From a virus: a stretch of DNA of 64,000 nt. The position numbers and the translations under genes were made by a program. The notes under the pieces are model-generated. The model made no database searches. It was not told the origin of the DNA and worked only from the letters and a program-made list of their open reading frames with translations. Where the stretch lies: positions 1-64,000 of the IMG/VR virus record IMGVR_UViG_3300043409_000956; one strand, given 5' to 3'. Every line of letters begins with the position of its first letter. Position 1 is the first letter of the stretch. Of the stretch, positions 37,070 to 61,581 are shown in pieces.

Positions 37070-39604
37070 ATGAACTTATACGACCTATCTCATCCTAGCA
37101 AAAAGAAAAAACAACAACTAGCCATGGAAAGCCGCCTGGCTGAATTTGCACCACCTGGTGGAGATGATGGCGGTCCCGACGAAGATGAGATACTATTCAA
37201 ACTAGCCAAACAATGGTGGCTTGGCACTGAACAAGACATGATTCGTGTGGAACGCACACTAGCATCAATGGGTTGGGAAATTGGTGAAGATGAAGGCAGT
37301 TATGACGACGGTGGTGTGTTTGTTGTACGTGCCGGTGATGTCAACGGTAAAAGTTATCAGTCATGGCCGCATGAGGAATTAGTAACGGAAGGTGCCACGG
37401 TAACAACAACCCCTGGATCCGTTGAGCCAGGTGGTGCAGTAGACAACTTTAAACAACAGATGGCCAACAATACTGAACTTGCATATCAGAAAAAACAACA
37501 AGGCATGGCCGAAGGTGACACTGTAGTCAAACACCGTATCGGCCTAACTGTCACAGACCCCAACCACCCCATGGCGAGCAAGCGCAACGAACCCTTTCAA
37601 CGGACTGTGCGTGTGCCCGGCGATGATCCTGCCAAGGCCATCAATGCGGCCATTGCACACTATCGCCGCAAAGGTTACAAAGTGCATGACCATCACTACA
37701 TGGGCACAGTGGACTATACCATAGACGAAGCGGCACCCGATTGGTTGAGACGCACAGCCGGTGCGGCCACAGGTGCATTGGCCGGTGTTGGTGCAAGTTT
37801 CCCCGGTGCGGCCATTGCAGGTCCCATTGGTGGTGCAGTGGCAGGTGCATACGGAGCCAAAGCCGGATATGATTTAGGTGCCGATGCCGCTGACTGGGTA
37901 TATGACAAAGTCACTGGCGAACGAGTTCCGGCAGACAAGACCGAGGTTGATGAAGCATTAACAATGAAGCATCAGCGAGCTCATACAACTCAAAGACGCC
38001 CCGACATCAGCAATAGCCTGGCCGATAGAGACTTTGACATGTCAGAGAAACCCAATGTTGCCAAGAGTGCAGATGGTCACCCCACAGTCAAGTGGCGTCA
38101 TCATGGCCATGCCGGACATACTAGAGTTGAGCCCACACTGAACCCGACCACAGTGCAACGCAAGGACACAAGACCCATACCATCTTTCTTGAAGAAAGGC
38201 ATGGCGGAAGACGCAGAAAACTTTAACGGCATTGAGTTATCAATGAAGATACAACTCCAAGATGTTGAATATGTTGATGATGAAGATTATGATAATCAAG
38301 TAATATATGTCACTGCTAGTAGCAACGGTAGGGAACTGGGGCATGTGTTATTTTCGTTTGATGGTGAGTATTTAATGCCTCAGGATTTAGAAGTAGAAGA
38401 AAAGTATCGTGGACAGGGCATTGCTCAAACAATGTATGATTATGTAAAGAGCAAAGGATATAAAATACGCCGCAGTGGACAACAAACTGATGCAGGCGCT
38501 GGATTTTGGGACAAACATAAACCTGGAAAAAATGTCTGGGAACAAGGTGTGGCGGAAGGCTCACTAAACGAATTTGCACCAGATGGCTTTAACGGTGATG
38601 ACGATGAAGGATTCAGTCCGGAAATTGCCAAGATGGCGTATGATGCTGGTAGTGTCAAGGGCGTGAGCCTTGCTGACGGTGCTACATTAGCCAGAGCAAT
38701 GGCGATAACGGAGTGGGACAAACAAGACGGTGGCATTTACACCCAGCACTTTGCAAAAGGCTTCAAAGCAGGTCGTATGAATAAAATCAATCACCACAAT
38801 AAACAATACAATCTCAACTTGAAGTTGATGAAAGATGGTAGCATTAGACGCGGTCAGCAAGGTGTGGCGGAAGGTTCATTAGAAGAAGATGAATATGATA
38901 AAATGCTAAGAGATTTGTTGAAGGCAAGACCTGACTTAACTAAAAAATATGCCAAAGATGTTCAAAAGTCAAAAGATATTGAAAGTGGCAAAGAGTTAAA
39001 CAAACTTGTTAAAAAGAATCCTGGTGTATTGAAAACATACAGTGATGCTGTAAAGAGAGATAAGAAACTAGGTGTGGCGGAAGGTGGATACCGTCAAGGT
39101 TTTGCAGATCCCAACGCACCCAGTCTAGGTGGCAGTCGTAGAAAAGATGACGAAGGCAACTCAGAGTTTGATGACCGTCAGCGTAGACAAACCGGAATGA
39201 TATTCTACAAGGTTGACGACGCCGAACTAGCACAACAACTAGGACTCAAACAAACTCGTGCAGGCAAGTGGTATTTGCGTACAGGTAACAGACATGCACA
39301 ACAGACTGCTGACCGTGCATTTGGCCTGGGACGCATTTGGTATCCAAAGAATGAAACTGTAGAGTCAGAAGAGCTCGGCGAACTCAGCAATGAGTTGTTG
39401 GGTCGTTACAAAAAAGAACTAGGTATCCGTGCTAGTGCCGCAGATCGAGCAGGCAACTTTGACAAAGGTCACGAATACTTTAAAAAAATCAACCGAGCAA
39501 CTGTTCGCCAAGGTGATAATGATGCTCGCAGACACGCAGAAAAAGAAAACGATGTAATGGAAACTCGTTTAAATATGATGCGTAAGGCAGGATACGATCT
39601 ATGA
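37070..39604 (+). CDS. Modular 844-residue virion polyprotein candidate with an embedded GNAT-like domain
   Basis: ATG at 37070 is just after the upstream stop. Five seams of the form G(V/M)AE followed by G or D lie at Glu148, 380, 496, 601 and 671, splitting the chain into blocks of about 148, 232, 116, 105, 70 and 173 residues. Block 2 carries a glycine-zipper stretch (AGAATGALAGVGASFPGAA). Block 3 is almost exactly one GNAT-like domain (LEVEEKYRGQGIAQTMYDYV, then AGAGFWDK). Blocks 1 and 4 share an L-x-EFAP(P/D)G opening. The seam (hydrophobic-A-E|G/D) resembles T4 gp21 prohead-protease sites. The cargo role is inference; the seams are seen. Confidence 0.75.
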   Translation: MNLYDLSHPSKKKKQQLAMESRLAEFAPPGGDDGGPDEDEILFKLAKQWWLGTEQDMIRVERTLASMGWEIGEDEGSYDDGGVFVVRAGDVNGKSYQSWPHEELVTEGATVTTTPGSVEPGGAVDNFKQQMANNTELAYQKKQQGMAEGDTVVKHRIGLTVTDPNHPMASKRNEPFQRTVRVPGDDPAKAINAAIAHYRRKGYKVHDHHYMGTVDYTIDEAAPDWLRRTAGAATGALAGVGASFPGAAIAGPIGGAVAGAYGAKAGYDLGADAADWVYDKVTGERVPADKTEVDEALTMKHQRAHTTQRRPDISNSLADRDFDMSEKPNVAKSADGHPTVKWRHHGHAGHTRVEPTLNPTTVQRKDTRPIPSFLKKGMAEDAENFNGIELSMKIQLQDVEYVDDEDYDNQVIYVTASSNGRELGHVLFSFDGEYLMPQDLEVEEKYRGQGIAQTMYDYVKSKGYKIRRSGQQTDAGAGFWDKHKPGKNVWEQGVAEGSLNEFAPDGFNGDDDEGFSPEIAKMAYDAGSVKGVSLADGATLARAMAITEWDKQDGGIYTQHFAKGFKAGRMNKINHHNKQYNLNLKLMKDGSIRRGQQGVAEGSLEEDEYDKMLRDLLKARPDLTKKYAKDVQKSKDIESGKELNKLVKKNPGVLKTYSDAVKRDKKLGVAEGGYRQGFADPNAPSLGGSRRKDDEGNSEFDDRQRRQTGMIFYKVDDAELAQQLGLKQTRAGKWYLRTGNRHAQQTADRAFGLGRIWYPKNETVESEELGELSNELLGRYKKELGIRASAADRAGNFDKGHEYFKKINRATVRQGDNDARRHAEKENDVMETRLNMMRKAGYDL
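38546..39084 (+). repeat. Dispersed 14-base seam repeat GGTGTGGCGGAAGG
   Basis: The 14-mer is identical at 38546-38559, 38861-38874 and 39071-39084, always in the same frame (GVAEG). Divergent copies GGCATGGC(C/G)GAAG occur at 37502 and 38199. A second shared 12-mer, GAATTTGCACCA, is at 37142 and 38570. Identity at DNA level suggests recent duplication or recombination at domain borders. Confidence 0.8.
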
Positions 39605-40032
39605 CACTATCAGAAACTACAAAAATAGCATTTGCTAGCGAATATACCTTTTATTTGAAGGCACACAACTTTCACTGGAATGTGGAAGGTGCTGACTTCC
39701 TAGAACATCACCAGTTGTTTGGCATGATCTACGAAGAAGTATACGGTGCCATTGACGATTTTGCAGAAAAGATTCGCGGCATCGGTAGTTATGTGCCAGC
39801 CAGCTACACCAGATTCAGTCAATTGAGTCAAATTGGTGACGAGACCAACATACTCAGCCCGGGTGCCATGTTGCATGAACTATCAGAAGACAATGAAAAA
39901 ATGTTGTTGGTACTGAAGATGGCTTATGATGCAGCCGAACAAGCCGGCGAGCATGGATTCTCAAACTTCTTAGCTGAACGGTTAGATGCACATCGTAAAC
40001 ACGGTTGGATGTTGAGAGCAAGTCTAAAATAA
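39601..40032 (+). CDS. Dps/ferritin-like protein
   Basis: KAHNFHWNVEGADFLEHHQL then IYEEVYGAIDDFAEKIR is the Dps ferroxidase signature (H, W, H, D and E ligands). The length (143) fits a single four-helix bundle. Dps proteins oxidise iron and shield DNA from peroxide. It follows the modular gene by an ATGA overlap, so it is co-expressed with the virion-type unit and might be packaged or protect phage DNA. Confidence 0.85.
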   Translation: MTLSETTKIAFASEYTFYLKAHNFHWNVEGADFLEHHQLFGMIYEEVYGAIDDFAEKIRGIGSYVPASYTRFSQLSQIGDETNILSPGAMLHELSEDNEKMLLVLKMAYDAAEQAGEHGFSNFLAERLDAHRKHGWMLRASLK

Positions 40033-40733
40033 TGTTGCCCATCATAGCAACATTGGTGATGACACATATCACCATCATATGTGTCACAGTTTTCCTACAC
40101 CGCGGACAAGCACATCGCGGATTGATATTTCATCCTGTACTTAGTCACTTTATGCGAGCCTGGCTTTGGCTAACAACCGGAATGGTCACTAAACAATGGG
40201 TAGCCATACATCGTAAGCATCATAGGTTCAGTGATGTTGCGGGTGACCCACATAGCCCACACGTATATGGAATTGGACGAGTATTGTTTAAAGGAGCAAT
40301 GTTATATCATGAAGCAAGCAAAGATACGGACATGGTTAATACATATGGTGCTGGTACTCCTGCTGATTGGATGGAGCTTCACGTATACCAGCCTTACTCT
40401 AGACTTGGCATTGGCATTCTCTTTGTGCTAGACGTCTTGGTGTTTGGATGGTGGGGTCCTGTAATTTGGGGCATCCAGATGATATGGATACCGTTTTGGG
40501 CAGCCGGAGTCATAAACGGCGTTGGTCATTGGATTGGGTATCGTAATGGTGAAACCAAAGATCATAGTCGTAACATCGTGCCTTGGGGCATTGTCGTTGG
40601 TGGAGAGGAGTTGCACAACAATCACCACCTGAACCCAGCAAGTCCCAGGCTCAGCAAGACCTGGTTTGAATTTGATGCAGGCTGGATGTACATAAATATT
40701 TTTAAATCGCTTGGACTACTTAAAATTAAATGA
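40032..40733 (+). CDS. Fatty acid desaturase, acyl-lipid/acyl-CoA type
   Basis: Three histidine boxes are in order: HRGQAH (about residue 23), HRKHH (about 60) and HNNHH (about 195), separated by hydrophobic helices. This is the di-iron delta9-type desaturase plan, shortened to 233 residues. ATG 40032 overlaps the Dps stop by one base. It would change membrane lipid unsaturation of the host. Confidence 0.88.
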   Translation: MLPIIATLVMTHITIICVTVFLHRGQAHRGLIFHPVLSHFMRAWLWLTTGMVTKQWVAIHRKHHRFSDVAGDPHSPHVYGIGRVLFKGAMLYHEASKDTDMVNTYGAGTPADWMELHVYQPYSRLGIGILFVLDVLVFGWWGPVIWGIQMIWIPFWAAGVINGVGHWIGYRNGETKDHSRNIVPWGIVVGGEELHNNHHLNPASPRLSKTWFEFDAGWMYINIFKSLGLLKIK

Positions 40734-41481: not shown

Positions 41482-42024
41482 ATGAAATCTGATCAATGGG
41501 CAATTACTCTCCCGCCAAGCAAGGACACAATAATCAGTAGCGCCGATTATCGTACATTGAAATTTGTACAGCTACTTGTTAGTAAAATGATTAACATATC
41601 TGTTGCGGAATTGAAAAAAAGTCCTAAACTAATTCTGTCAGATCAAGAACAAATAATCAATCTCATTTACCAAATAGTCAATGTTGAGTTAACTGGTATA
41701 GATACGTATAAGACTATTAGACAAGATCTTTATTATGTACACCATATTTCGGTAGATGTTACCAAAGAGTTCCTTACTATTGTCGGCGGTGTCGATACTG
41801 TCGTCGAACTTGCACATCAGTCCGAAATTAATAACTTAACTCAGTATATAGAACATTGTGATAATCATAAAAGTTTTGTTTTCAACTTGCTATACAATAC
41901 AGATTACAATAAATCTGCTGTTGAAATTTACAAATGGTTTCTCAACGAATTAACAAAATATCCGCCTGACACTAGTTATGTATCGTACAACCTGAATAAA
42001 CTGTTAAGTAACATTAACCTATGA
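41482..42024 (+). CDS. Hypothetical protein, 180 residues
   Basis: Helical, AT-rich gene with a different codon flavour from the neighbours. No motif recognised (ends YVSYNLNKLLSNINL). Overlaps the PP-loop gene by four bases and may be its partner. There is a TATAAT only six bases before the start, which is too close for a normal leader. Confidence 0.6.
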   Translation: MKSDQWAITLPPSKDTIISSADYRTLKFVQLLVSKMINISVAELKKSPKLILSDQEQIINLIYQIVNVELTGIDTYKTIRQDLYYVHHISVDVTKEFLTIVGGVDTVVELAHQSEINNLTQYIEHCDNHKSFVFNLLYNTDYNKSAVEIYKWFLNELTKYPPDTSYVSYNLNKLLSNINL

Positions 42025-48285: not shown

Positions 48286-48929
48286 TGTCATTTTCCTTCC
48301 ACCAATACTGGGAACCAAAAGGTCATGTGTTTGGTACTTGCATGAGCAAGCCGGATCTTGACCTTATGTATGTCAACATACCCAAGAATGCCAGTTCGTG
48401 GACCAAACCCAACTTGTTGGATCAACACTGGGAATTTTATAACTACCACCTTGATCATATCAGACATAAACATGCCATGGTTGTGTTACGAGATCCTGTG
48501 GAGCGTTGGCTCAGTGGTATATGCGAATACTTTACATTGTACCATCGAGATATAGACACTACTGAATTTAATTCTGCATTTTACGATCTGCTGATGGAAC
48601 AAATTACATTTGACGATCATACAGAAAAACAAGCGTACTTTATCAATGGTCTAAATCCCAATAGGATAACTTTCTTTTGGTGTGATGCAGATTATCGCTT
48701 GTACTTTAGTCAGTTCTTGCGTAACCAAGGCATTCCCGAAGCCGCTAGATATGCAAATTATGACTTTCAACATACCACAGAAGATCGCCAGGATGGCGAT
48801 ACTCGCAGACTTAAATTTAAAAATATATTCAAGCACCTACTAGACAATCCTGTGTATCTTGAACGAATCAAACAGCATTATGCTCCAGACTACGAATTAA
48901 TAAATAAAGTGAAATTTTGGCGTGGATGA
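48285..48929 (+). CDS. Sulfotransferase-like protein
   Basis: MYVNIPKNASSWTKPNL is the 5'-phosphosulfate-binding loop and MVVLRDPVERWLSG the 3'-phosphate-binding strand. These are the two PAPS-binding motifs of the sulfotransferase family. Length 214. Starts in TAATG after the clamp stop. The sulfated target is unknown. Confidence 0.75.
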   Translation: MSFSFHQYWEPKGHVFGTCMSKPDLDLMYVNIPKNASSWTKPNLLDQHWEFYNYHLDHIRHKHAMVVLRDPVERWLSGICEYFTLYHRDIDTTEFNSAFYDLLMEQITFDDHTEKQAYFINGLNPNRITFFWCDADYRLYFSQFLRNQGIPEAARYANYDFQHTTEDRQDGDTRRLKFKNIFKHLLDNPVYLERIKQHYAPDYELINKVKFWRG

Positions 48930-50463
48930 TTTAACCAGTAAACAAAAAGACTATGCAGTATTCCTGCCTGCTATCAGTGGCTTCTATGCTACCTTTGTGG
49001 GCAAGCAAAGAGATACTGCCAGTGTGCCGTATGTAGACCCTGCACGTTTTCCGCAGGGCTTAACTGATATGGAGCAACTCAACTGGTTAAACAGCCAGAA
49101 AGCGTTGTTCCCATATAAATGGTCGCTTTACTCCGGCGGCCATGCTAACCTCGATCTAAACAAACAAGATTGGAGCGAGGACATGGTTCGAAATCGTGAT
49201 CCCAACACACTGGTCTTAGGCGACTCTGGCGGATTCCAGATTGCTAAAGGACTATGGGAAGGCGATTGGAAAGCCAACTCAGGATGCCTGAAGGCCCAGA
49301 AAAAACGTGAACAAGTTTTGGCTTGGCTGGACGGCATTGCTGATTATGGAATGATTTTAGATATACCAACCTGGGTTGTAAATGATCCACACGCCAGTTC
49401 AAAGTGTCAAATCACCACACATCAACAGGCAGTTGATGCCACCAAGTTCAACAACGAATACTTTATGCGTAATCGCAAAGGCAAGAACAATGGTGGTGCC
49501 AAGTTCTTAAATGTGTTACAGGGTGCCACACACACAGAAGCAGAAGATTGGTATCAAACCATGAAACATTACTGTGACCCTGCTGTGTATCCAGACACAC
49601 ACTTTGACGGTTGGAGCATGGGTGGTCAAAACATGTGTGATGTACACTTGGTATTAAAACGCCTGGTGGCCTTGCGCTATGATAACTTGTTACAAGAAGG
49701 AGTTCATGATTGGATGCACTTCTTGGGTACTAGTAAACTAGAGTGGGCTGTTTTATTAACTGTAATTCAACGTGCCATTAGAAAATATGTTAACCCCTCC
49801 TTTACCATCAGTTTTGATTGTGCCAGTCCGTTCCTTGCAACAGCCAATGGTCAGGTCTACTTTGAAAATGTGTTTGAACACGATAGCAAATGGAGTTACC
49901 GGATGGCTCCCAGTGCAGACGATAAAAAATACGCCACAGACACCCGTAAATGGAGTACCGGAGTAGTTGCTGATGGAATCTATCCACGATGGGAAGATAG
50001 CCCATTGAGCGACTTGTTTAAGATGAAAGATATTTGCATCTACAAACCCGGCGACCTAAATAAGAATGGCAAAGAAGGCAAAACATCGTGGGATAGTTTT
50101 AGTTACGCATTGCTAATGGGCCATAATGTTTGGATGCACTTGACTGCGGTTCAAGAAGCCAACAGACGTTTTGATGCTGGCGAACATCCTGCTATGATGC
50201 AACGTTCGGGCGGAGACTATGCCAGATTTGAAGACATCGTAGAAGCAATCTTTGCGGCTCCCACCAAACAAGATGCATTGGACATTATTGAGCTGTATGA
50301 TACATATTGGATGGAAATTATTGGAACTCGTGGTGCCAAAGGTAAGAAAGCTAAAAACTCAAACACCATGTTTAAATCCTTATTTGAAGTTGACGAGCCT
50401 GAAAGCAATGACGACTCGGTTGAATTAGATCAAACAGCATTGGACAACTTGGAAGGATCATGA
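48922..50463 (+). CDS. tRNA-guanine transglycosylase superfamily protein, DpdA-like
   Basis: LVLGDSGGFQIAKG (Asp101) is the TGT substrate motif, FDGWSMGGQN stands for the GGxxxGE loop, and SFDCASPF (Asp299) gives the nucleophile, like the DCxxPTR of TGT. The CxCxxC zinc site of tRNA TGT is absent. DpdA enzymes, which put 7-deazaguanines into DNA, show that same loss. Start is GTG, overlapping the previous stop. At 513 residues it is longer than bacterial TGT. Confidence 0.75.
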   Translation: MDDLTSKQKDYAVFLPAISGFYATFVGKQRDTASVPYVDPARFPQGLTDMEQLNWLNSQKALFPYKWSLYSGGHANLDLNKQDWSEDMVRNRDPNTLVLGDSGGFQIAKGLWEGDWKANSGCLKAQKKREQVLAWLDGIADYGMILDIPTWVVNDPHASSKCQITTHQQAVDATKFNNEYFMRNRKGKNNGGAKFLNVLQGATHTEAEDWYQTMKHYCDPAVYPDTHFDGWSMGGQNMCDVHLVLKRLVALRYDNLLQEGVHDWMHFLGTSKLEWAVLLTVIQRAIRKYVNPSFTISFDCASPFLATANGQVYFENVFEHDSKWSYRMAPSADDKKYATDTRKWSTGVVADGIYPRWEDSPLSDLFKMKDICIYKPGDLNKNGKEGKTSWDSFSYALLMGHNVWMHLTAVQEANRRFDAGEHPAMMQRSGGDYARFEDIVEAIFAAPTKQDALDIIELYDTYWMEIIGTRGAKGKKAKNSNTMFKSLFEVDEPESNDDSVELDQTALDNLEGS

Positions 50464-50648
50464 TGATTAAAAATCGAATTGCACATTTAGAACAACAACA
50501 CCATGCACTAGACAAGCAAGTTGATCAAATGGAACGCACTGGAAACTTTTCGGACAAACAGATTGCCGAATTAAAGAAAAAGAGGTTGCACTTTAAAGAT
50601 GAAATTGCTAAACTAAAGCAACAACTCCGGGATGAATTGAATGATTAG
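50460..50648 (+). CDS. DUF465 (YdcH-like) coiled-coil protein
   Basis: 62 residues: IKNRIAHLEQQHHALDKQVD, then KKKRLHFKDEIAKLKQQL is the DUF465/YdcH pattern of small helical hairpins. Function unknown even in bacteria. Four-base overlap with the gene before and eight-base overlap after. Confidence 0.7.
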   Translation: MMIKNRIAHLEQQHHALDKQVDQMERTGNFSDKQIAELKKKRLHFKDEIAKLKQQLRDELND

Positions 50649-51177
50649 AGAAGGGCATGAAGAAACGAAATTCTTCGTAGGCACAGAAGTAGAACATACT
50701 CCTGCGTTTGGTAAGACAACTTTGTTTGTTGTTGGCATCCAGGATGCGAAAGATATACAGTCAATAATTGACGAGCGATCCTGTTTGCTTGACGAATCAA
50801 AACACATCAAGCATATCTATTTTGGTGCTAATCACAGTTTCCCCAACCTGGCAGTTAACGATGGTGCTGACTGGGCCAAGTGGGAAAAGATGATTTACAA
50901 CTTCCTGGACCGAGATTACTTATGCACATTGGATATTGATGTGGCCTGTGTCGAAGGATTACTAGAAGCCGGCTTTGTTGAATACCATAACTTTATCCCT
51001 ATGATTTCAGTTAAATTGCCCTATGTATTACAACTGGGGTATAATGCTGTCGTTAAACTTGATGACAAAGACTTCAATGCCACAACACCCGGAGTTTGGT
51101 GCCATCAATTACACAACCTATTAGACCGTAAGGTATTCACTGAGTGGTCTAAATATACCAAAGACGAAACATTATGA
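50641..51177 (+). CDS. Conserved-type phage hypothetical between DpdA-like and QueD-like genes
   Basis: 178 residues, alpha/beta, with TKFFVGTEVEHTPAFGK, LDIDVACVEGLLEAG and a C-terminal FNATTPGVWCHQLHNLLD. There is no CxxxCxxC motif, so it is not QueE. Position between two 7-deazaguanine candidates makes a pathway or partner role possible. Family not named. Confidence 0.6.
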   Translation: MIREGHEETKFFVGTEVEHTPAFGKTTLFVVGIQDAKDIQSIIDERSCLLDESKHIKHIYFGANHSFPNLAVNDGADWAKWEKMIYNFLDRDYLCTLDIDVACVEGLLEAGFVEYHNFIPMISVKLPYVLQLGYNAVVKLDDKDFNATTPGVWCHQLHNLLDRKVFTEWSKYTKDETL

Positions 51178-51614
51178 CACAAGAAGAACGCGAACAAGTT
51201 GAACGAATTAAACAACGTGCAGATCGTAAGATCTGGGTCACATTCCGTAAAGAAGGTATACATTGCTATCCTGCGGCGGCCACTGATCCTGCACTGGCCA
51301 CAGGCGATGAATATGATGTGAGTTTCTTGGGATCTCCACATCGTCACATATTCCACTTTAGAGTGTGGATTGATGTGTTGCACAACGATCGTGACATTGA
51401 GTTTATTCAATTCAAACGTTGGTTAGAAAATTTGTACAAAGACGGCATCTTGCAACTGGACTACAAGAGTTGTGAAATGATGTCAGATGATTTGTATTTG
51501 CAAATTGCCAATCGTTATCCCAACCGTGCTATCTGGATTGAAGTTTCTGAAGATGGTGAGAATGGCGCACTAATTAAGTATGAGACCTTTCGGCCACAAC
51601 TTATTAGTGTGTGA
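51174..51614 (+). CDS. QueD/6-pyruvoyl-tetrahydropterin synthase-like protein
   Basis: His30 in GIHCYP and His56/His58 in PHRHIFHFRV fit the zinc triad (family: AAH and HGH). DIEFIQFKRWLENLY corresponds to the IDFxxLK stretch, and WIEVSEDGENGALIKYE to the terminal Glu strand. Cys31 is a possible catalytic residue. QueD makes carboxy-tetrahydropterin from the FolE product. The match is partial, so an unrelated T-fold protein is possible. Confidence 0.5.
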   Translation: MTQEEREQVERIKQRADRKIWVTFRKEGIHCYPAAATDPALATGDEYDVSFLGSPHRHIFHFRVWIDVLHNDRDIEFIQFKRWLENLYKDGILQLDYKSCEMMSDDLYLQIANRYPNRAIWIEVSEDGENGALIKYETFRPQLISV

Positions 51615-54951: not shown

Positions 54952-55401
54952 ATGTCTATTACTATTAAAAACTTAGAGGCGGCGTTTGCCGGTGAGTCAC
55001 AGGCTCACACTAAATATCGCTATTTTGCAAAACTGGCTCGTGCCGAAGGATTTGAAGATGTTGCAAAACACTTTGAACATACAGCAGATCAAGAACTGCT
55101 ACACGCATGGGGCCATTTAGAATTGATCATTGGCAAGCCAACAACTCGCGAATGTTTGGAAAAGGCTATCGAAGGTGAGACCTATGAGTTCACCACAATG
55201 TATCCAGAGATGAAACATCAAGCCATTGTTGAAGGTGACGAACATGCTGTGCTTGAAGCAGACATGCAAATTGGCGAAAGTAAAGAACACGCAGAGCAAT
55301 TTGCCGCTATTCTAGCCAAGGCAGAAAAGCGTTTTTCCGCTCTACAACGAGTAGAGCAACATCATGCAAATCTTTACAAACAAAAATTGGAGGCACTATA
55401 A
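54952..55401 (+). CDS. Rubrerythrin diiron domain
   Basis: AAFAGESQAHTKYRYFAKLA, then FEHTADQELLHAWGHLE with ExxH ligands, and further Glu pairs (AIEGETYEF, EGDEHAVLEADM, KEHAEQF) form the rubrerythrin di-iron bundle. Length 149: the usual C-terminal rubredoxin domain is missing and is encoded separately at 55403. Rubrerythrins reduce peroxide. RBS AAAGGAAAA. Confidence 0.88.
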   Translation: MSITIKNLEAAFAGESQAHTKYRYFAKLARAEGFEDVAKHFEHTADQELLHAWGHLELIIGKPTTRECLEKAIEGETYEFTTMYPEMKHQAIVEGDEHAVLEADMQIGESKEHAEQFAAILAKAEKRFSALQRVEQHHANLYKQKLEAL

Positions 55402-56781: not shown

Positions 56782-56964
56782 ATGACTGATTTAAAAGCAC
56801 CGTTTGAAGCATACTTGGCTGAGAACGAAAAATTCGAAGGTGGTAACAATGCCGCAGGTACCCGTGCTCGCAAAGCATTGGCCGAACTAGGTAAAGCAGT
56901 CAAGGCACGCCGTAACGAAATTACCGAAACTAAAAATGCGAGAGTTGCCGCTAAAGCAAAATAA
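56782..56964 (+). CDS. Histone-like small basic protein, 60 residues
   Basis: NNAAGTRARKALAELGKAVKARRNE and a Lys/Ala tail resemble bacterial histone H1-like (Hc1-type) proteins. Very basic, likely DNA-binding. The site is AAAGGAAAAT. It overlaps the GalE-like start by one base. Confidence 0.65.
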   Translation: MTDLKAPFEAYLAENEKFEGGNNAAGTRARKALAELGKAVKARRNEITETKNARVAAKAK

Positions 56965-57935
56965 TGAACAGAACTGTTGTTGTAACAGGTGGATGTGGCT
57001 ACATAGGTAGCCATGTTGCTCGTGCATTTAAACAAAACAATGATACTGTACACATCATTGATCAAGTCAACCGCGAGCATACTCTCAAAGACATTGATGG
57101 ATATCTGATTGCCGACTTTGCCAGTGACGAAGCCCTGGCTATGATAGTTAACCTAGCACCCGATGTTGTTGTACATTGTGCTGGCACCAGCTTGGTTGGG
57201 CCCAGCATAACTGACCCCGCCGAATACTACACAAACAACATAGTCAAGACCATTGCCTTGTTGAATGTTGTTAGACACATGTCCAAACGGCCTGTGATAC
57301 TGTTTAGCAGTAGTGCCAGTGTGTACGGCGTACCTGATACTTGGCCCACCGATGAAGGCAGTGACATACAACCCATCAGTCCCTACGGTGCTACCAAGGC
57401 CATGACTGAACGCATACTAGATGACTATTTCAAAGCATACGACATTCATAGTATGTGTTTTAGATATTTTAATGCGGCAGGTGCCGAGCCTTTTAATTCG
57501 GATCTTGGGCAAGAACCTGGTGCAACACATATTGTTGCTCGTGCATTAGAAGCCAGCATTGCTAATCGTGCATTTACAATCAACGGTGACGACTACGATA
57601 CCGACGATGGTACTTGTGTTCGAGACTATGTGCATGTATGGGATTTAGCTCAGGCACATATACTAGGTGTCAACTACCTGCTAGATGACTATCCGCAACC
57701 AGGTGCTTATGTTTTAAATCTTGGCACTCGAGAGGGAATAAGTAATAAACAAATCGTTGATTATGTGTTTAACAAATACGGATTACCATTTGTTAACTAC
57801 GGACCAAAGCGGCCGGGCGACCCAGATATACTCGTAGCCGATGCTACACAAGCAAAGAACCTATTGGGATGGGTGCCCAAGTACAGCAACATTGAAACTA
57901 TTATCAACTCAGCACACAAATGGTATACTAAATGA
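56964..57935 (+). CDS. UDP-glucose 4-epimerase-like (GalE type)
   Basis: SDR epimerase: VVVTGGCGYIGSHVA (GxxGxxG), SSSASVYG, the YGATK catalytic Tyr/Lys, and FRYFNAAGAEP, which is a GalE signature. DYVHVWDLAQAHI follows. 323 residues, normal length. Interconverts nucleotide sugars and opens the sugar cassette. Confidence 0.88.
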   Translation: MNRTVVVTGGCGYIGSHVARAFKQNNDTVHIIDQVNREHTLKDIDGYLIADFASDEALAMIVNLAPDVVVHCAGTSLVGPSITDPAEYYTNNIVKTIALLNVVRHMSKRPVILFSSSASVYGVPDTWPTDEGSDIQPISPYGATKAMTERILDDYFKAYDIHSMCFRYFNAAGAEPFNSDLGQEPGATHIVARALEASIANRAFTINGDDYDTDDGTCVRDYVHVWDLAQAHILGVNYLLDDYPQPGAYVLNLGTREGISNKQIVDYVFNKYGLPFVNYGPKRPGDPDILVADATQAKNLLGWVPKYSNIETIINSAHKWYTK

Positions 57936-58291
57936 CAAGACTATACGGACAAGTAGAAAAAGGGTGGGGTTCAGAAGAAATCTGGGCCAGCAACGACCGA
58001 TACTGCGGTAAGTTAATGAACTTTAATACCGGTGCAAAATTCAGTATGCATTTCCATGCAGAAAAAGATGAGAGCTGGTATGTGCTCAGTGGAAAGTTCA
58101 GTGTACACTACATCGACACCGTAGATGCCAGTCTACGTACAGCAGAACTGAATCCTGGAGACACATGGCATAACCTACCATTGTTGCCACATCAATTAGA
58201 GTGTGTTGAAGCTGGTACTGTAATCGAAGTTAGTACACCAGACAGCGTAGAAGACAACTATCGTGTGGGTAAAGGTGATAGTCAACGATGA
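57932..58291 (+). CDS. Cupin, mannose-6-phosphate isomerase type II-like
   Basis: SMHFHAEKDESWYVLSGKFSV and NPGDTWHNLPLLPHQ are the two cupin motifs. WGSEEIW at the start matches the pattern before type II PMI domains. 119 residues. Overlaps both neighbours by four bases, so part of the cassette. Confidence 0.7.
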   Translation: MTRLYGQVEKGWGSEEIWASNDRYCGKLMNFNTGAKFSMHFHAEKDESWYVLSGKFSVHYIDTVDASLRTAELNPGDTWHNLPLLPHQLECVEAGTVIEVSTPDSVEDNYRVGKGDSQR

Positions 58292-58698
58292 CTCGAGTAT
58301 TTGTTAACGGCACCTTTGATATTATGCATCGAGGTCATCTCGAAATGCTCGAATATGCTCGTAGCCTTGGTGATGAAGTATTGGTTGCCATAGATTCTGA
58401 CAGACGTGTTCGAGAACTAAAAGGCGGTGGCCGACCTATCAATAACCAAATAGATAGACAATTTATGCTAGAAAGTTTAAAATACGTTGACAGAGTTTGC
58501 ATTTTTGATTCTGACGCGGAATTAATCAACACAATCAAACAGTATGATGTTGACGTTATGGTCAAGGGCAGTGACTATAAAGGTTATCCTATAATTGGAC
58601 AAGAGTACTGTAAACACATTGAATTTTTTAAATTAATAAATGAATACTCAACAACCAAAGCAATTCAACATATTGCTGATCGGCGACGACTGCATTGA
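58288..58698 (+). CDS. Sugar-phosphate nucleotidyltransferase (HldE C-terminal / RfaE2-like)
   Basis: RVFVNGTFDIMHRGHLEML has the HxGH motif (His14 and His17); VAIDSDRRVRELKGGGRP and VKGSDYK follow, as in heptose-1-phosphate adenylyltransferase. In bacteria this is the C-terminal half of HldE; here it is separate and precedes the kinase. Confidence 0.8.
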   Translation: MTRVFVNGTFDIMHRGHLEMLEYARSLGDEVLVAIDSDRRVRELKGGGRPINNQIDRQFMLESLKYVDRVCIFDSDAELINTIKQYDVDVMVKGSDYKGYPIIGQEYCKHIEFFKLINEYSTTKAIQHIADRRRLH

Positions 58699-59386
58699 TG
58701 TATACCAATTTGGCACTGTAGATCGCATCAGTCCCGAAGCTCCTGTACCTGTATTTGAATGCACCCATAAGGATACCAAACCCGGCATGGCCGGCAATGT
58801 GGCCAAGAACTTGGAAGCACTGGGTTGTCGGGTCACATACCTACACAACGAAACATCAACCAAGACCAGACTAATTGATGTTCGTAGTAAGCAACAAATT
58901 GTACGCATAGACAGCGACAGTCGATGCACACCGTTAACATTTGATACTGTTATCCCACCAGGGTATGATGCTATTGTTGTCAGTGATTATAACAAGGGTA
59001 CAGTAACATATGAATTACTTACGGAGTTACGTGAAGGTTTTGCAGGTCCCATCTTTGTTGACACAAAGAAAACAGATCTGGCACAACTGGAAGGTTGTAT
59101 TGTAAAGATTAATCAACTTGAGTCGAGTCGTATTACCAGTCGGTGTACAGACTTGATTGTAACACAAGGTGACAAGGGTGCGGTCTGGAGTGACATACAT
59201 TTTACTGCCAGACGTGTAGAAGTTGCTGATGTGTGTGGTGCTGGGGATACATTCCTAGCCGCACTAACTTACAAATATCTAACAGAAGACAACATGCCGC
59301 CTGCTATAAACTTTGCTATCCGTGCCAGTGCTGTTACTGTACAGCACATCGGTAACTATGCACCCACTGTAGAGGAAATTGCATGA
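58640..59386 (+). CDS. PfkB-family sugar kinase (HldE N-terminal / RfaE1-like)
   Basis: FNILLIGDDCIDVYQFGTVDRISPEAPVPVF splits into the HldE-type start, with GMAGNVAKNLEALG and the ribokinase signature CGAGDTFLAAL (Asp as base). At 248 residues it is shorter than the usual HldE kinase half (about 320). The start overlaps the previous gene by 59 bases and has no clear ribosome site. Confidence 0.78.
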   Translation: MNTQQPKQFNILLIGDDCIDVYQFGTVDRISPEAPVPVFECTHKDTKPGMAGNVAKNLEALGCRVTYLHNETSTKTRLIDVRSKQQIVRIDSDSRCTPLTFDTVIPPGYDAIVVSDYNKGTVTYELLTELREGFAGPIFVDTKKTDLAQLEGCIVKINQLESSRITSRCTDLIVTQGDKGAVWSDIHFTARRVEVADVCGAGDTFLAALTYKYLTEDNMPPAINFAIRASAVTVQHIGNYAPTVEEIA

Positions 59387-60228
59387 AAGTAATGGTCACA
59401 GGTAGTCGAGGTTTTATTGGACAAAACTTAATCGCCTACTTAAAACTACACACTGACTGGCATGTGGATGGTTGGAATATCACAGACAACCCAGATCTAT
59501 TGTTCAACGACTATGACTGGATCATTCACTTGGGCGCAAACTCAAGTACTGTGGAGCGTGATGTTGACAGCATAATGCGTACCAATTATGATTTTAGTCG
59601 TTGGCTATATCAACGCTGTTGCGAAGAGGGTATCAACTTACAATACGCCAGTAGTGCCAGTGTTTACGGCGTTGTATCAGATTTCAAAGAAACTAGCCCA
59701 CCAGATCCACGTAATCCCTATGCTTGGAGCAAGTACTTGTTTGATCGACATGTGGAACAAAATCCCACAGACCGAATCGTTGTGCAGGGATTTAGATACT
59801 TTAATGTATACGGTCACTATGAAGAACACAAAGGTGGACAAGCAAGCCCTGTTACGCAATTCAGACGGCAGGCCGAGTCTACAGGTGTTATCAAACTATT
59901 CCACGACAGCGACAAGTATCTGCGTGATTTTATCTGTGTGGAAGATGTTGCTTGGACACACTTACAGTTCGCACAACGAGTGCCCAAGTCCGGTGTTTGG
60001 AATGTGGGCACTGGAAATGCTGTTAGTTTTAAATACGTTGCTGATCAAATCGTAATGGTAACTCATGCCGACATTGAATACATAGACATGCCCGAAGTAT
60101 TAAAGGGCAACTATCAAGCATATACCCGCGCCGATATTGCCAAGTTGTACGAAGCAATAGGTCCACAAAATTGGATGACCGTTAGAGAATGGATCAAGGT
60201 AAACCCCGATGTTCGACGATTTATATAA
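59383..60228 (+). CDS. ADP-heptose 6-epimerase-like (HldD type) SDR
   Basis: VMVTGSRGFIGQNL, the SSASVYG strand and YAWSKYLFD (catalytic Tyr/Lys) are SDR; FRYFNVYGHYEEHKGGQAS and DKYLRDFICVEDVA are typical of HldD. Length 281, slightly short. With the two HldE halves it could complete ADP-L-glycero-D-manno-heptose. Confidence 0.78.
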   Translation: MKVMVTGSRGFIGQNLIAYLKLHTDWHVDGWNITDNPDLLFNDYDWIIHLGANSSTVERDVDSIMRTNYDFSRWLYQRCCEEGINLQYASSASVYGVVSDFKETSPPDPRNPYAWSKYLFDRHVEQNPTDRIVVQGFRYFNVYGHYEEHKGGQASPVTQFRRQAESTGVIKLFHDSDKYLRDFICVEDVAWTHLQFAQRVPKSGVWNVGTGNAVSFKYVADQIVMVTHADIEYIDMPEVLKGNYQAYTRADIAKLYEAIGPQNWMTVREWIKVNPDVRRFI

Positions 60229-60793
60229 ATTTGAATCTGCATTAGCAAAGTATACCGGAGCTCCGTATGTGGTGGTTACAGATGGATGCACCCATGCCAT
60301 AGAGTTATGCTTTAGGTTCAACCGTATTACCGCCTGTGAGTTCTCTGCATTTACCTATATCAGTATCCCACAATTAATGCGACAACTGGGTGTACACTAT
60401 ACCTTAAGGTCGGACTATTGGAACACCATTGGTGAATACAATTTTATAGGTACTAATATTTGGGATAGTGCCAGGCTATTACGTAGAGGCATGTACAAGC
60501 CAGGCCAGATCCAATGTCTCAGCTTTGGTCACGGCAAGCCACTAAGTGTTGGCAAGGCTGGTGCTATCTTAACAGACTCTTACGCACAGTATAGAGAACT
60601 GAGCCTAATGCGTAGTGATGGAAGAGATCTTTTAGTTACACCCTGGGAACGTCAACAGACATTCGGTGAGGGCTATCACTACTGTCCAACACTAGAAACT
60701 TGTAGAATGGGTTTAGATTTATTGGATATGGTTAGTCAAGAACCTAAATATCATCAATATCCGGACTTGAGAACCATTGACTTTACAAGTTAA
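60209..60793 (+). CDS. DegT/DnrJ/EryC1 aminotransferase-like, shortened
   Basis: YVVVTDGCTHAIELCFRF matches the PLP phosphate-binding start, and CLSFGHGKPLSVGKAGAILT is the PLP-Lys region, with Lys in SFGHGK. Only 194 residues versus about 370 in the family, so the C-terminal domain is missing. It may be a reduced aminotransferase or a non-catalytic relative. Overlaps HldD by 20 bases. Confidence 0.65.
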   Translation: MFDDLYKFESALAKYTGAPYVVVTDGCTHAIELCFRFNRITACEFSAFTYISIPQLMRQLGVHYTLRSDYWNTIGEYNFIGTNIWDSARLLRRGMYKPGQIQCLSFGHGKPLSVGKAGAILTDSYAQYRELSLMRSDGRDLLVTPWERQQTFGEGYHYCPTLETCRMGLDLLDMVSQEPKYHQYPDLRTIDFTS

Positions 60794-60846: not shown

Positions 60847-61581
60847 TTGAACGAAAATTGGATTGACACCATAGACGACAAGGGCTATGAAGAAGGTTAC
60901 TTAGGCAACGCTATTCGCTTTCGAATGAAGCGTGACGGCAAAAGGTTTTGGGCCGGCGACAACATCAGTGACTATGTCAGCGAAGCAGATAAAGAACAAC
61001 TAATCGACGATGCCGCAGAAGCATTTGAAGGTGTACTTGATGCACTACTAATTGATCGAGAAACTGATCCCAACAGTCAAGGTACAGCACGACGACTGGC
61101 CAAAATGTACTTTAATGAAGTAATGGCTGGACGTTATGAACCAAGTCCCAATGCCACAGCCTTTCCTAACGATACCGACGGCAAATACGAAGGCATGTTG
61201 GTAGTACGCAGTGAGCTCAAATCAATGTGTAGTCATCATCACCAGCCGGTGTCGGGTGTGGCATACATTGGTATTATTGCAGGACCAAAACTAATCGGAC
61301 TTAGCAAGTATACTCGTATTGCACAATGGTGTGCCCGTAGAGGTACCTTACAAGAAGAATTGTGTATGGATATTGCCCGCGAAATTGAATATGCAACAGG
61401 ATCGCCAGACGTGGGTGTTTACATACAGGCCACCCACGGTTGTTGTGAGAATCGTGGTATTATGGCTCACAGTAGTTTGACACAAACTACGGTATTGCAT
61501 GGCGCCTTCCAAGCTGACCAAAGCACAAAGAAGGAATTCTTTGACAACATCAAACTACAACAAGACTTTGCACCCCGCTAA
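60847..61581 (+). CDS. folE: GTP cyclohydrolase I (FolE)
   Basis: TTG start after CGGAGA. The zinc Cys/His set is SMCSHHHQPVSG and THGCCENRG; GLSKYTRIAQWCARR binds the substrate. 244 residues, near the usual 220, with an extra N-terminal stretch. Makes dihydroneopterin triphosphate, the first step to folate and to 7-deazaguanines. Confidence 0.93.
   Translation: MNENWIDTIDDKGYEEGYLGNAIRFRMKRDGKRFWAGDNISDYVSEADKEQLIDDAAEAFEGVLDALLIDRETDPNSQGTARRLAKMYFNEVMAGRYEPSPNATAFPNDTDGKYEGMLVVRSELKSMCSHHHQPVSGVAYIGIIAGPKLIGLSKYTRIAQWCARRGTLQEELCMDIAREIEYATGSPDVGVYIQATHGCCENRGIMAHSSLTQTTVLHGAFQADQSTKKEFFDNIKLQQDFAPR

What the first reader, a model, noticed from the sequence alone, without database searches (positions are those of the whole stretch)
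48922..51614. DpdA-like transglycosylase next to a QueD-like gene, with FolE in the same window
The TGT homologue keeps the substrate and nucleophile motifs but lacks the tRNA-type zinc site, as DpdA does. A QueD-like gene lies two genes on, and folE is 9 kb away. Known phage systems use FolE-QueD-QueE-QueC with DpdA to put 7-deazaguanine into DNA and block restriction. QueE and QueC are not evident here; they may lie outside or be supplied by the host.
Basis: partly seen in the sequence, partly recalled or inferred. Interest (0 to 1): 0.7.

Follow-up and report, generated by a model that had tools for sequence, protein, structure and literature searches.

The report
Phage DNA guanine-swapping enzyme module
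A large environmental virus of bacteria carries a previously unclassified enzyme of the guanine-swapping kind, together with most of the genes that make the replacement base, so it probably rewrites guanines in its own DNA to escape bacterial defences; the enzyme family is very common in environmental phages but current databases do not recognise it.

Summary
The 48922-50463 protein is a TGT-fold base-exchange enzyme: confident model (pLDDT 90.5), top 25 PDB fold matches all TGTs. It is not a tRNA TGT: it lacks the zinc site, has His where all 12 tRNA TGTs have Tyr, and forms its own clade, closest by profile to DpdA2. Pfam, PHROGs and NCBIfam miss it. FolE and QueE occur in 22 of 22 long records checked. 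One correction: the 'QueD-like' gene at 51174 is not the QueD enzyme. It keeps the three zinc-type His and the Glu but lacks the catalytic Cys and the Asp-His pair. It occurs in 19 of 24 records and is missing from exactly the five with full-length QueC; nine more phages fit. It therefore probably acts on the QueC substrate (CDG), perhaps as the CDG decarboxylase recalled as 'DpdL' (Cui 2023, not readable here). Best reading: a new DpdA subfamily in a QueC-less 7-deazaguanine DNA module, probably inserting 7-deazaguanine or carboxy-7-deazaguanine. No DNA chemistry was tested.

The parts
48922..50463 (+). DNA guanine transglycosylase, new DpdA subfamily (here 'DPD'), 513 aa
   Evidence: Model pLDDT 90.5; Foldseek PDB top 25 all TGTs; hhalign to DpdA2 96.7%, E 3e-10; catalytic columns shared with TGT and DpdA2; zinc motif absent
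50641..51177 (+). Conserved partner gene of unknown function, usually between the transglycosylase and the QueD paralogue
   Evidence: Homologue in 133 of 165 loci, median 3 bp after the DPD gene; also beside FolE, DpdA2 and the QueD paralogue in Acidovorax phage ACP17 (gp122)
51174..51614 (+). QueD paralogue (here 'QDL', phrog_17812), proposed to process CDG in place of QueC
   Evidence: hhalign to QueD 90-92%, controls at most 1.5%; invariant H30, H56, H58, H70, E126; no QueD-type Cys or Asp-His; present in 19 of 24 records and absent exactly where full-length QueC occurs
60847..61581 (+). FolE, GTP cyclohydrolase I, first step of the base pathway
   Evidence: PF01227 E 1.1e-37; closest of the compared FolE proteins is that of Vibrio phage 2.275.O, 260 bits, which sits near a homologous transglycosylase; QueD (64626-65132) and QueE (65569-66420) follow just outside the window on the same contig

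Best explanation
This is the core of a phage 7-deazaguanine DNA-modification module. FolE (60847), QueD (64626) and QueE (65569) make 7-carboxy-7-deazaguanine (CDG) from GTP. The QueD paralogue at 51174 acts on CDG in place of QueC, most likely removing the carboxyl group to give 7-deazaguanine. The 48922 enzyme, a new DpdA subfamily, swaps that base for guanine in phage DNA through a covalent Asp299 intermediate, which would protect the DNA from host restriction. Shown here: fold, active-site residues, lack of the zinc site, separation from tRNA TGTs, and conserved linkage to FolE and QueE. Inferred: DNA as substrate, restriction protection, and above all the reaction of the 51174 protein (my confidence in decarboxylation alone is about 0.45).
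For: Fold and active site: model; PDB matches all TGT, E to 5e-8; viral matches include DpdA2 of Vibrio phage nt-1 and 'tRNA guanine transglycosylase' of Achromobacter phage Motura. Kinship: hhalign to DpdA2 96.7%, E 3e-10; to TGT 49.5%; controls at most 0.5%. Own clade; His266 in 13/13 DPD, 11/11 DpdA2 and 5/5 DpdA1 (His196 of 9g DpdA), but Tyr in 12/12 tRNA TGTs. Pathway: FolE 22/22 records, QueE 22/22, PTPS/QueD over cut-off 17/22. Vibrio phage 2.275.O has the homologue close to QueF, YhhQ, QueC and FolE. Module exchange: ACP17, X1 and BUCT-ZZ01 carry DpdA2 in the same FolE/QueE/QDL setting; DpdA2 phage nt-1 has measured dPreQ0, dADG and dG+ in its DNA (PMC6884629). QDL against QueC: 19 of 24 records have QDL and the five without it are the five with full-length QueC; nine further QDL phages lack full-length QueC.
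Against: No chemistry. Some QDL phages carry divergent QueC-family paralogues (G009, D479). Hosts may supply QueC. The own contig is a 93-kb fragment of what is probably a much larger genome, so QueC could lie elsewhere, although complete genomes of PA5oct and Phosso lack it. G010, G016 and G017 show no Pfam-detectable QueD. Sampling for the QDL/QueC pattern was not random and records are related. PMC6884629 says DpdA2 lacks His196, whereas my alignment places a His there. The QDL fold is only weakly supported (model pLDDT 54; Foldseek matches not significant).
Confidence: 0.75

Rival explanations
1. Same DNA transglycosylase, but the inserted base is preQ0 (or ADG) made with the host's QueC; the 51174 protein is a second or divergent CPH4 synthase, or a regulatory subunit.
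For: QueC is common in the control bacterial genomes (14 of 14 ring). YhhQ homologues near five of the loci suggest use of preQ0. Expressing 9g DpdA alone in E. coli gives dPreQ0 from host preQ0 (PMC6884629).
Against: The strict alternation of QDL and QueC across unrelated phages is unexplained. QDL lacks QueD catalytic residues and mostly co-occurs with a separate QueD.
Confidence: 0.25
2. Module ends at CDG: the phage inserts 7-carboxy-7-deazaguanine itself, and the 51174 protein is a carrier or a modifier acting on DNA-bound base.
For: FolE, QueD and QueE without QueC would stop at CDG; PMC6884629 considered the same for Mycobacterium phage Bipper, which lacks only QueC.
Against: Would not explain the conserved enzyme-like residues H30, H56, H58, H70, C100, E126 of QDL.
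Confidence: 0.2
3. The 48922 enzyme is a phage tRNA-guanine transglycosylase that raises queuosine in host tRNA, and the pathway genes supply its precursor.
For: TGT fold and the same nucleophile and substrate motifs.
Against: No zinc site in 136 of 137 homologues; own clade apart from TGT; His, not Tyr, at column 266 as in DpdA1 and DpdA2; exchanged for DpdA2 in equivalent modules.
Confidence: 0.06

Closest known systems
DpdA2 (Vibrio phage nt-1, YP_008125322; phrog_10773)
   Same: TGT fold, DSGG[FL]Q, nucleophile Asp, HxLG motif, no zinc site, sits with FolE/QueD/QueE; clearest profile match
   Different: Separate, well-supported clade; the DPD profile does not find nt-1 DpdA2 at E<=1 and finds ACP17 DpdA2 only at E 1e-4; nt-1 uses QueC, this module apparently does not
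DpdA (DpdA1, Enterobacteria phage 9g and Escherichia phage CAjan)
   Same: Works alike: DNA guanine exchange with a phage-encoded precursor; shares the His196 column
   Different: No significant profile match (1.4%); DSGA instead of DSGG; 317 against 513 aa; QueC or Gat-QueC present
Bacterial tRNA-guanine transglycosylase (Tgt, Z. mobilis and E. coli)
   Same: Fold and catalytic Asp, Gln and Gly positions
   Different: Zinc site missing, Tyr to His, large insertions, different clade
QueD / 6-carboxytetrahydropterin synthase (for the 51174 gene)
   Same: Profile match 90-92%, zinc-type His triad, Glu near the C-terminus
   Different: No catalytic Cys before the HxH motif and no Asp-His pair; has its own invariant His70 and SCE motif; co-occurs with a true QueD
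DpdL, CDG decarboxylase of phages (Cui et al. 2023, NAR, 10.1093/nar/gkad657; recalled, text not held)
   Same: Expected in phages with FolE/QueD/QueE and DpdA but no QueC, giving 7-deazaguanine
   Different: Identity of the 51174 family with DpdL could not be checked here

Membership tests
DpdA-type DNA guanine transglycosylase (general) | TGT-superfamily fold with substrate and nucleophile residues | tested here: met
DpdA-type DNA guanine transglycosylase (general) | Does not group with tRNA TGTs | tested here: met
   DPD 99* and TGT 100* as separate clades (quick tree, long branches)
DpdA-type DNA guanine transglycosylase (general) | Lacks the tRNA-TGT zinc site | tested here: met
   1 of 137 homologues with CxCxxC...H against 27 of 31 TGTs
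DpdA-type DNA guanine transglycosylase (general) | Genomic association with 7-deazaguanine synthesis genes | tested here: met
   FolE 22/22, QueE 22/22
DpdA-type DNA guanine transglycosylase (general) | 7-deazaguanine in phage DNA that depends on the gene | not testable with these tools
   Needs LC-MS and a deletion mutant
DpdA1 (9g) | Sequence or profile homology to 9g DpdA | tested here: not met
   hhalign 1.4%; the DPD profile finds nothing in the 9g genome
DpdA2 (nt-1) | Member of the DpdA2 clade / phrog_10773 | tested here: not met
   No PHROG hit; separate clade; homologous at profile level
DpdA3 / DpdA4 (Cui 2023, recalled: Campylobacter phages, archaeal viruses) | Homology to those subfamilies | tested here: inconclusive
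   DPD profile finds nothing in Campylobacter phage CP220 or Halovirus HVTV-1 at E<=1, but the reference proteins themselves were not identified
tRNA-guanine transglycosylase (PF01702) | Pfam match and zinc site | tested here: not met
   No Pfam match; zinc site absent
QueD (for 51174) | Catalytic Cys and Asp-His pair | tested here: not met
   Absent in all 11 aligned family members
DpdL CDG decarboxylase (for 51174) | Homology to a characterised DpdL and decarboxylase activity | not tested
   Paper not held; only the alternation with QueC was tested

The most novel reading that the evidence does not exclude
A new and environmentally dominant subfamily of DNA guanine transglycosylase works with a QueD-derived enzyme that replaces QueC by converting CDG to a different final base, so jumbo phages such as PA5oct, Paride and the window phage carry a QueC-independent modification (7-deazaguanine or an undescribed CDG derivative), and phages have switched repeatedly between the QueC and QDL branches.
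Probability: 0.4. Interest if true: 0.7.

Novelty: new variant of a known kind. Interest (0 to 1): 0.55.

Why it matters
It adds a large DNA-modifying enzyme family that the searched databases miss (no Pfam, PHROGs or NCBIfam hit), found in at least 590 viral stretches and in well-studied P. aeruginosa jumbo phages, where base modification could affect restriction sensitivity, sequencing bias and DNA quantification. The QDL/QueC alternation gives a simple, testable rule for predicting which modified base a phage carries.

Tried and rejected
tRNA TGT: rejected. 51174 as the QueD enzyme: rejected, since the catalytic residues are missing and a true QueD lies at 64626. PP-loop proteins at 42021 and 63706 as a hidden QueC: not supported (no PF06508 match in the own contig; the 63706 protein only weakly matches Asn_synthase; the 42021 protein has one weak 30-residue PP-loop match to the QueC PHROG). 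Sequence searches of PDB with single protein and profiles found nothing. Single-protein scans with PA5oct and Vibrio homologues found no loci because the patterns were too specific; an alignment-based scan solved this. The single-sequence model of QDL is poor (pLDDT 54); its helix-strand order fits the T-fold and its non-significant Foldseek list is rich in T-fold proteins, which I count as a hint only. A mixed QueD/QDL heteromer with a shared active site was considered; there is no evidence either way. The key paper on new phage 7-deazaguanines (gkad657) is not held. No report of 7-deazaguanine in PA5oct-group phages was found.

Full report
What is there. The window is the first 64 kb of a 93,092-bp viral contig. 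The gene at 48922-50463 encodes 513 aa. It matches no family in Pfam, PHROGs or NCBIfam and no PDB sequence. Named phages with it are the PA5oct group (36% identity, including Paride), Sinorhizobium phage Phosso and Vibrio phage 2.275.O. The family B DNA polymerase of the window is closest to Phosso and Atu_ph07, so the contig is probably a fragment of a jumbo phage.

The enzyme. A 40-sequence alignment shows invariant D101, S102, G103, G104, Q106, D147, G201, H266, L268, G269 and D299. The model is confident (pLDDT 90.5, pTM 0.89). The 25 best PDB fold matches are all TGTs, E-values down to 5e-8, with modest TM-scores (about 0.4 to 0.55) because of insertions and an extra C-terminal part. In the viral library the matches include DpdA2 of phage nt-1. 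Profile-profile comparison gives DpdA2 96.7% (E 3e-10), TGT 49.5% (E 1.7e-4), DpdA1 1.4%, and unrelated controls at most 0.5%.

DNA type rather than tRNA type. In a tree of 42 proteins the family is one clade (99*), apart from TGT (100*), DpdA2 (100*) and DpdA1 (95*) (quick method, long branches, so deep order is not claimed). Column 266 is His in all DPD, DpdA2 and DpdA1 rows and Tyr in all 12 tRNA TGTs; in phage 9g it is His196, the residue that PMC6884629 names as conserved in DpdA (that paper says DpdA2 lacks it, which my alignment does not bear out). The zinc motif is missing in 136 of 137 distinct members.

The pathway. FolE is at 60847-61581. Beyond the window end, on the same contig, are QueD (64626-65132; PF01242 E 3.9e-15, phrog_2389) and QueE (65569-66420; phrog_2076 E 4e-50). 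This QueE has the C-x3-C...CD cysteines with an insertion, as in phage nt-1. Across 22 long records with the enzyme (own contig, 17 other viral contigs, PA5oct, Vibrio 2.275.O, Phosso, and the distant Xanthomonas phage PhiXhv-15), FolE is in 22, QueE in 22 and a PTPS/QueD over cut-off in 17.

The neighbour at 51174. It is found within 5 kb downstream in 83 of 99 loci with enough sequence. It is a QueD relative by profile (90-92% against at most 1.5% for controls). All aligned members keep three His of the zinc type and a C-terminal Glu, but have no Cys before HxH and no Asp-His pair, and share their own His70 and SCE motif. A separate QueD with the usual catalytic residues is encoded by the same phage. 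I therefore do not count 51174 as QueD.

QDL against QueC. Of 24 records tested, 19 have QDL. The five without it (G007, Vibrio 2.275.O, Xanthomonas PhiXhv-15, 9g, nt-1) are exactly the five with full-length QueC. Nine further QDL phages (ACP17, Cellulophaga phiST, RHph_I1_18, X1, Ahp1, Bakedbeans, D479, BUCT-ZZ01, MA9V-3) have no full-length QueC, while Cellulophaga phi38:2 has QueC and QueF and was not hit in the QDL searches. Divergent QueC-family paralogues do occur with QDL in G009 and D479. The pattern holds with the DPD enzyme (Vibrio 2.275.O and G007 against the rest) and with DpdA2 (nt-1 against ACP17, X1, BUCT-ZZ01), so the switch happened more than once. Sampling was not random and records are related, so I give no P value. 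The simplest inference is that QDL acts on the QueC substrate CDG. From memory, Cui et al. 2023 named a CDG decarboxylase DpdL and reported 7-deazaguanine and CDG in phage DNA; the paper could not be read here.

Mechanism. By analogy with TGT, Asp299 attacks C1' of the target deoxyguanosine, guanine leaves, and the deazapurine bound by D101, D147, Q200 and G230 takes its place. Fold and residues are shown; DNA as substrate, the base identity and protection from restriction are inferred from DpdA and DpdA2 (PMC6884629).

Verdict. It is a new variant of a known kind of system, of moderate to good interest because of its abundance and because the final base is predicted to be unusual.

Noticed in passing
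window 50641-51177: A 178-aa protein with no Pfam, PHROGs or NCBIfam match is linked to the transglycosylase in 133 loci and also sits in the DpdA2/QDL cluster of phage ACP17; possibly a further module component.
   Followed up: partly
window 63706 to contig 64545 (L001:706-1545): PP-loop ATPase-like protein (SGGLDS, weak Asn_synthase match) between FolE and QueD; homologues near QueD/QueE in several relatives. Not QueC by Pfam, function unknown.
   Followed up: partly
L086:9581-11287 (Xanthomonas phage PhiXhv-15): Distant member of the enzyme family that still has a CxCxxC...H zinc-like motif and the His of DNA-type enzymes; possible intermediate, in a phage with QueC and QueD.
   Followed up: partly
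L253:7212-8363 (Vibrio phage Bakedbeans gp176): The QDL domain is the C-terminal part of a 383-aa fusion protein.
   Followed up: no
window 56964-60793: Run of sugar-nucleotide genes read by eye (epimerases, cupin isomerase, cytidylyltransferase, PfkB-type kinase, DegT-type aminotransferase), like a heptose or surface-sugar cassette.
   Followed up: no
window 39601-40733 and 54952-55401: Dps-like and rubrerythrin-like proteins (by eye) and a fatty acid desaturase (PF00487) encoded by the phage.
   Followed up: no
L095 (JAHZKQ010000191.1): A gammaproteobacterial MAG contains a contig piece with this viral gene; probably viral contamination or a lytic phage fragment in the bin.
   Followed up: no
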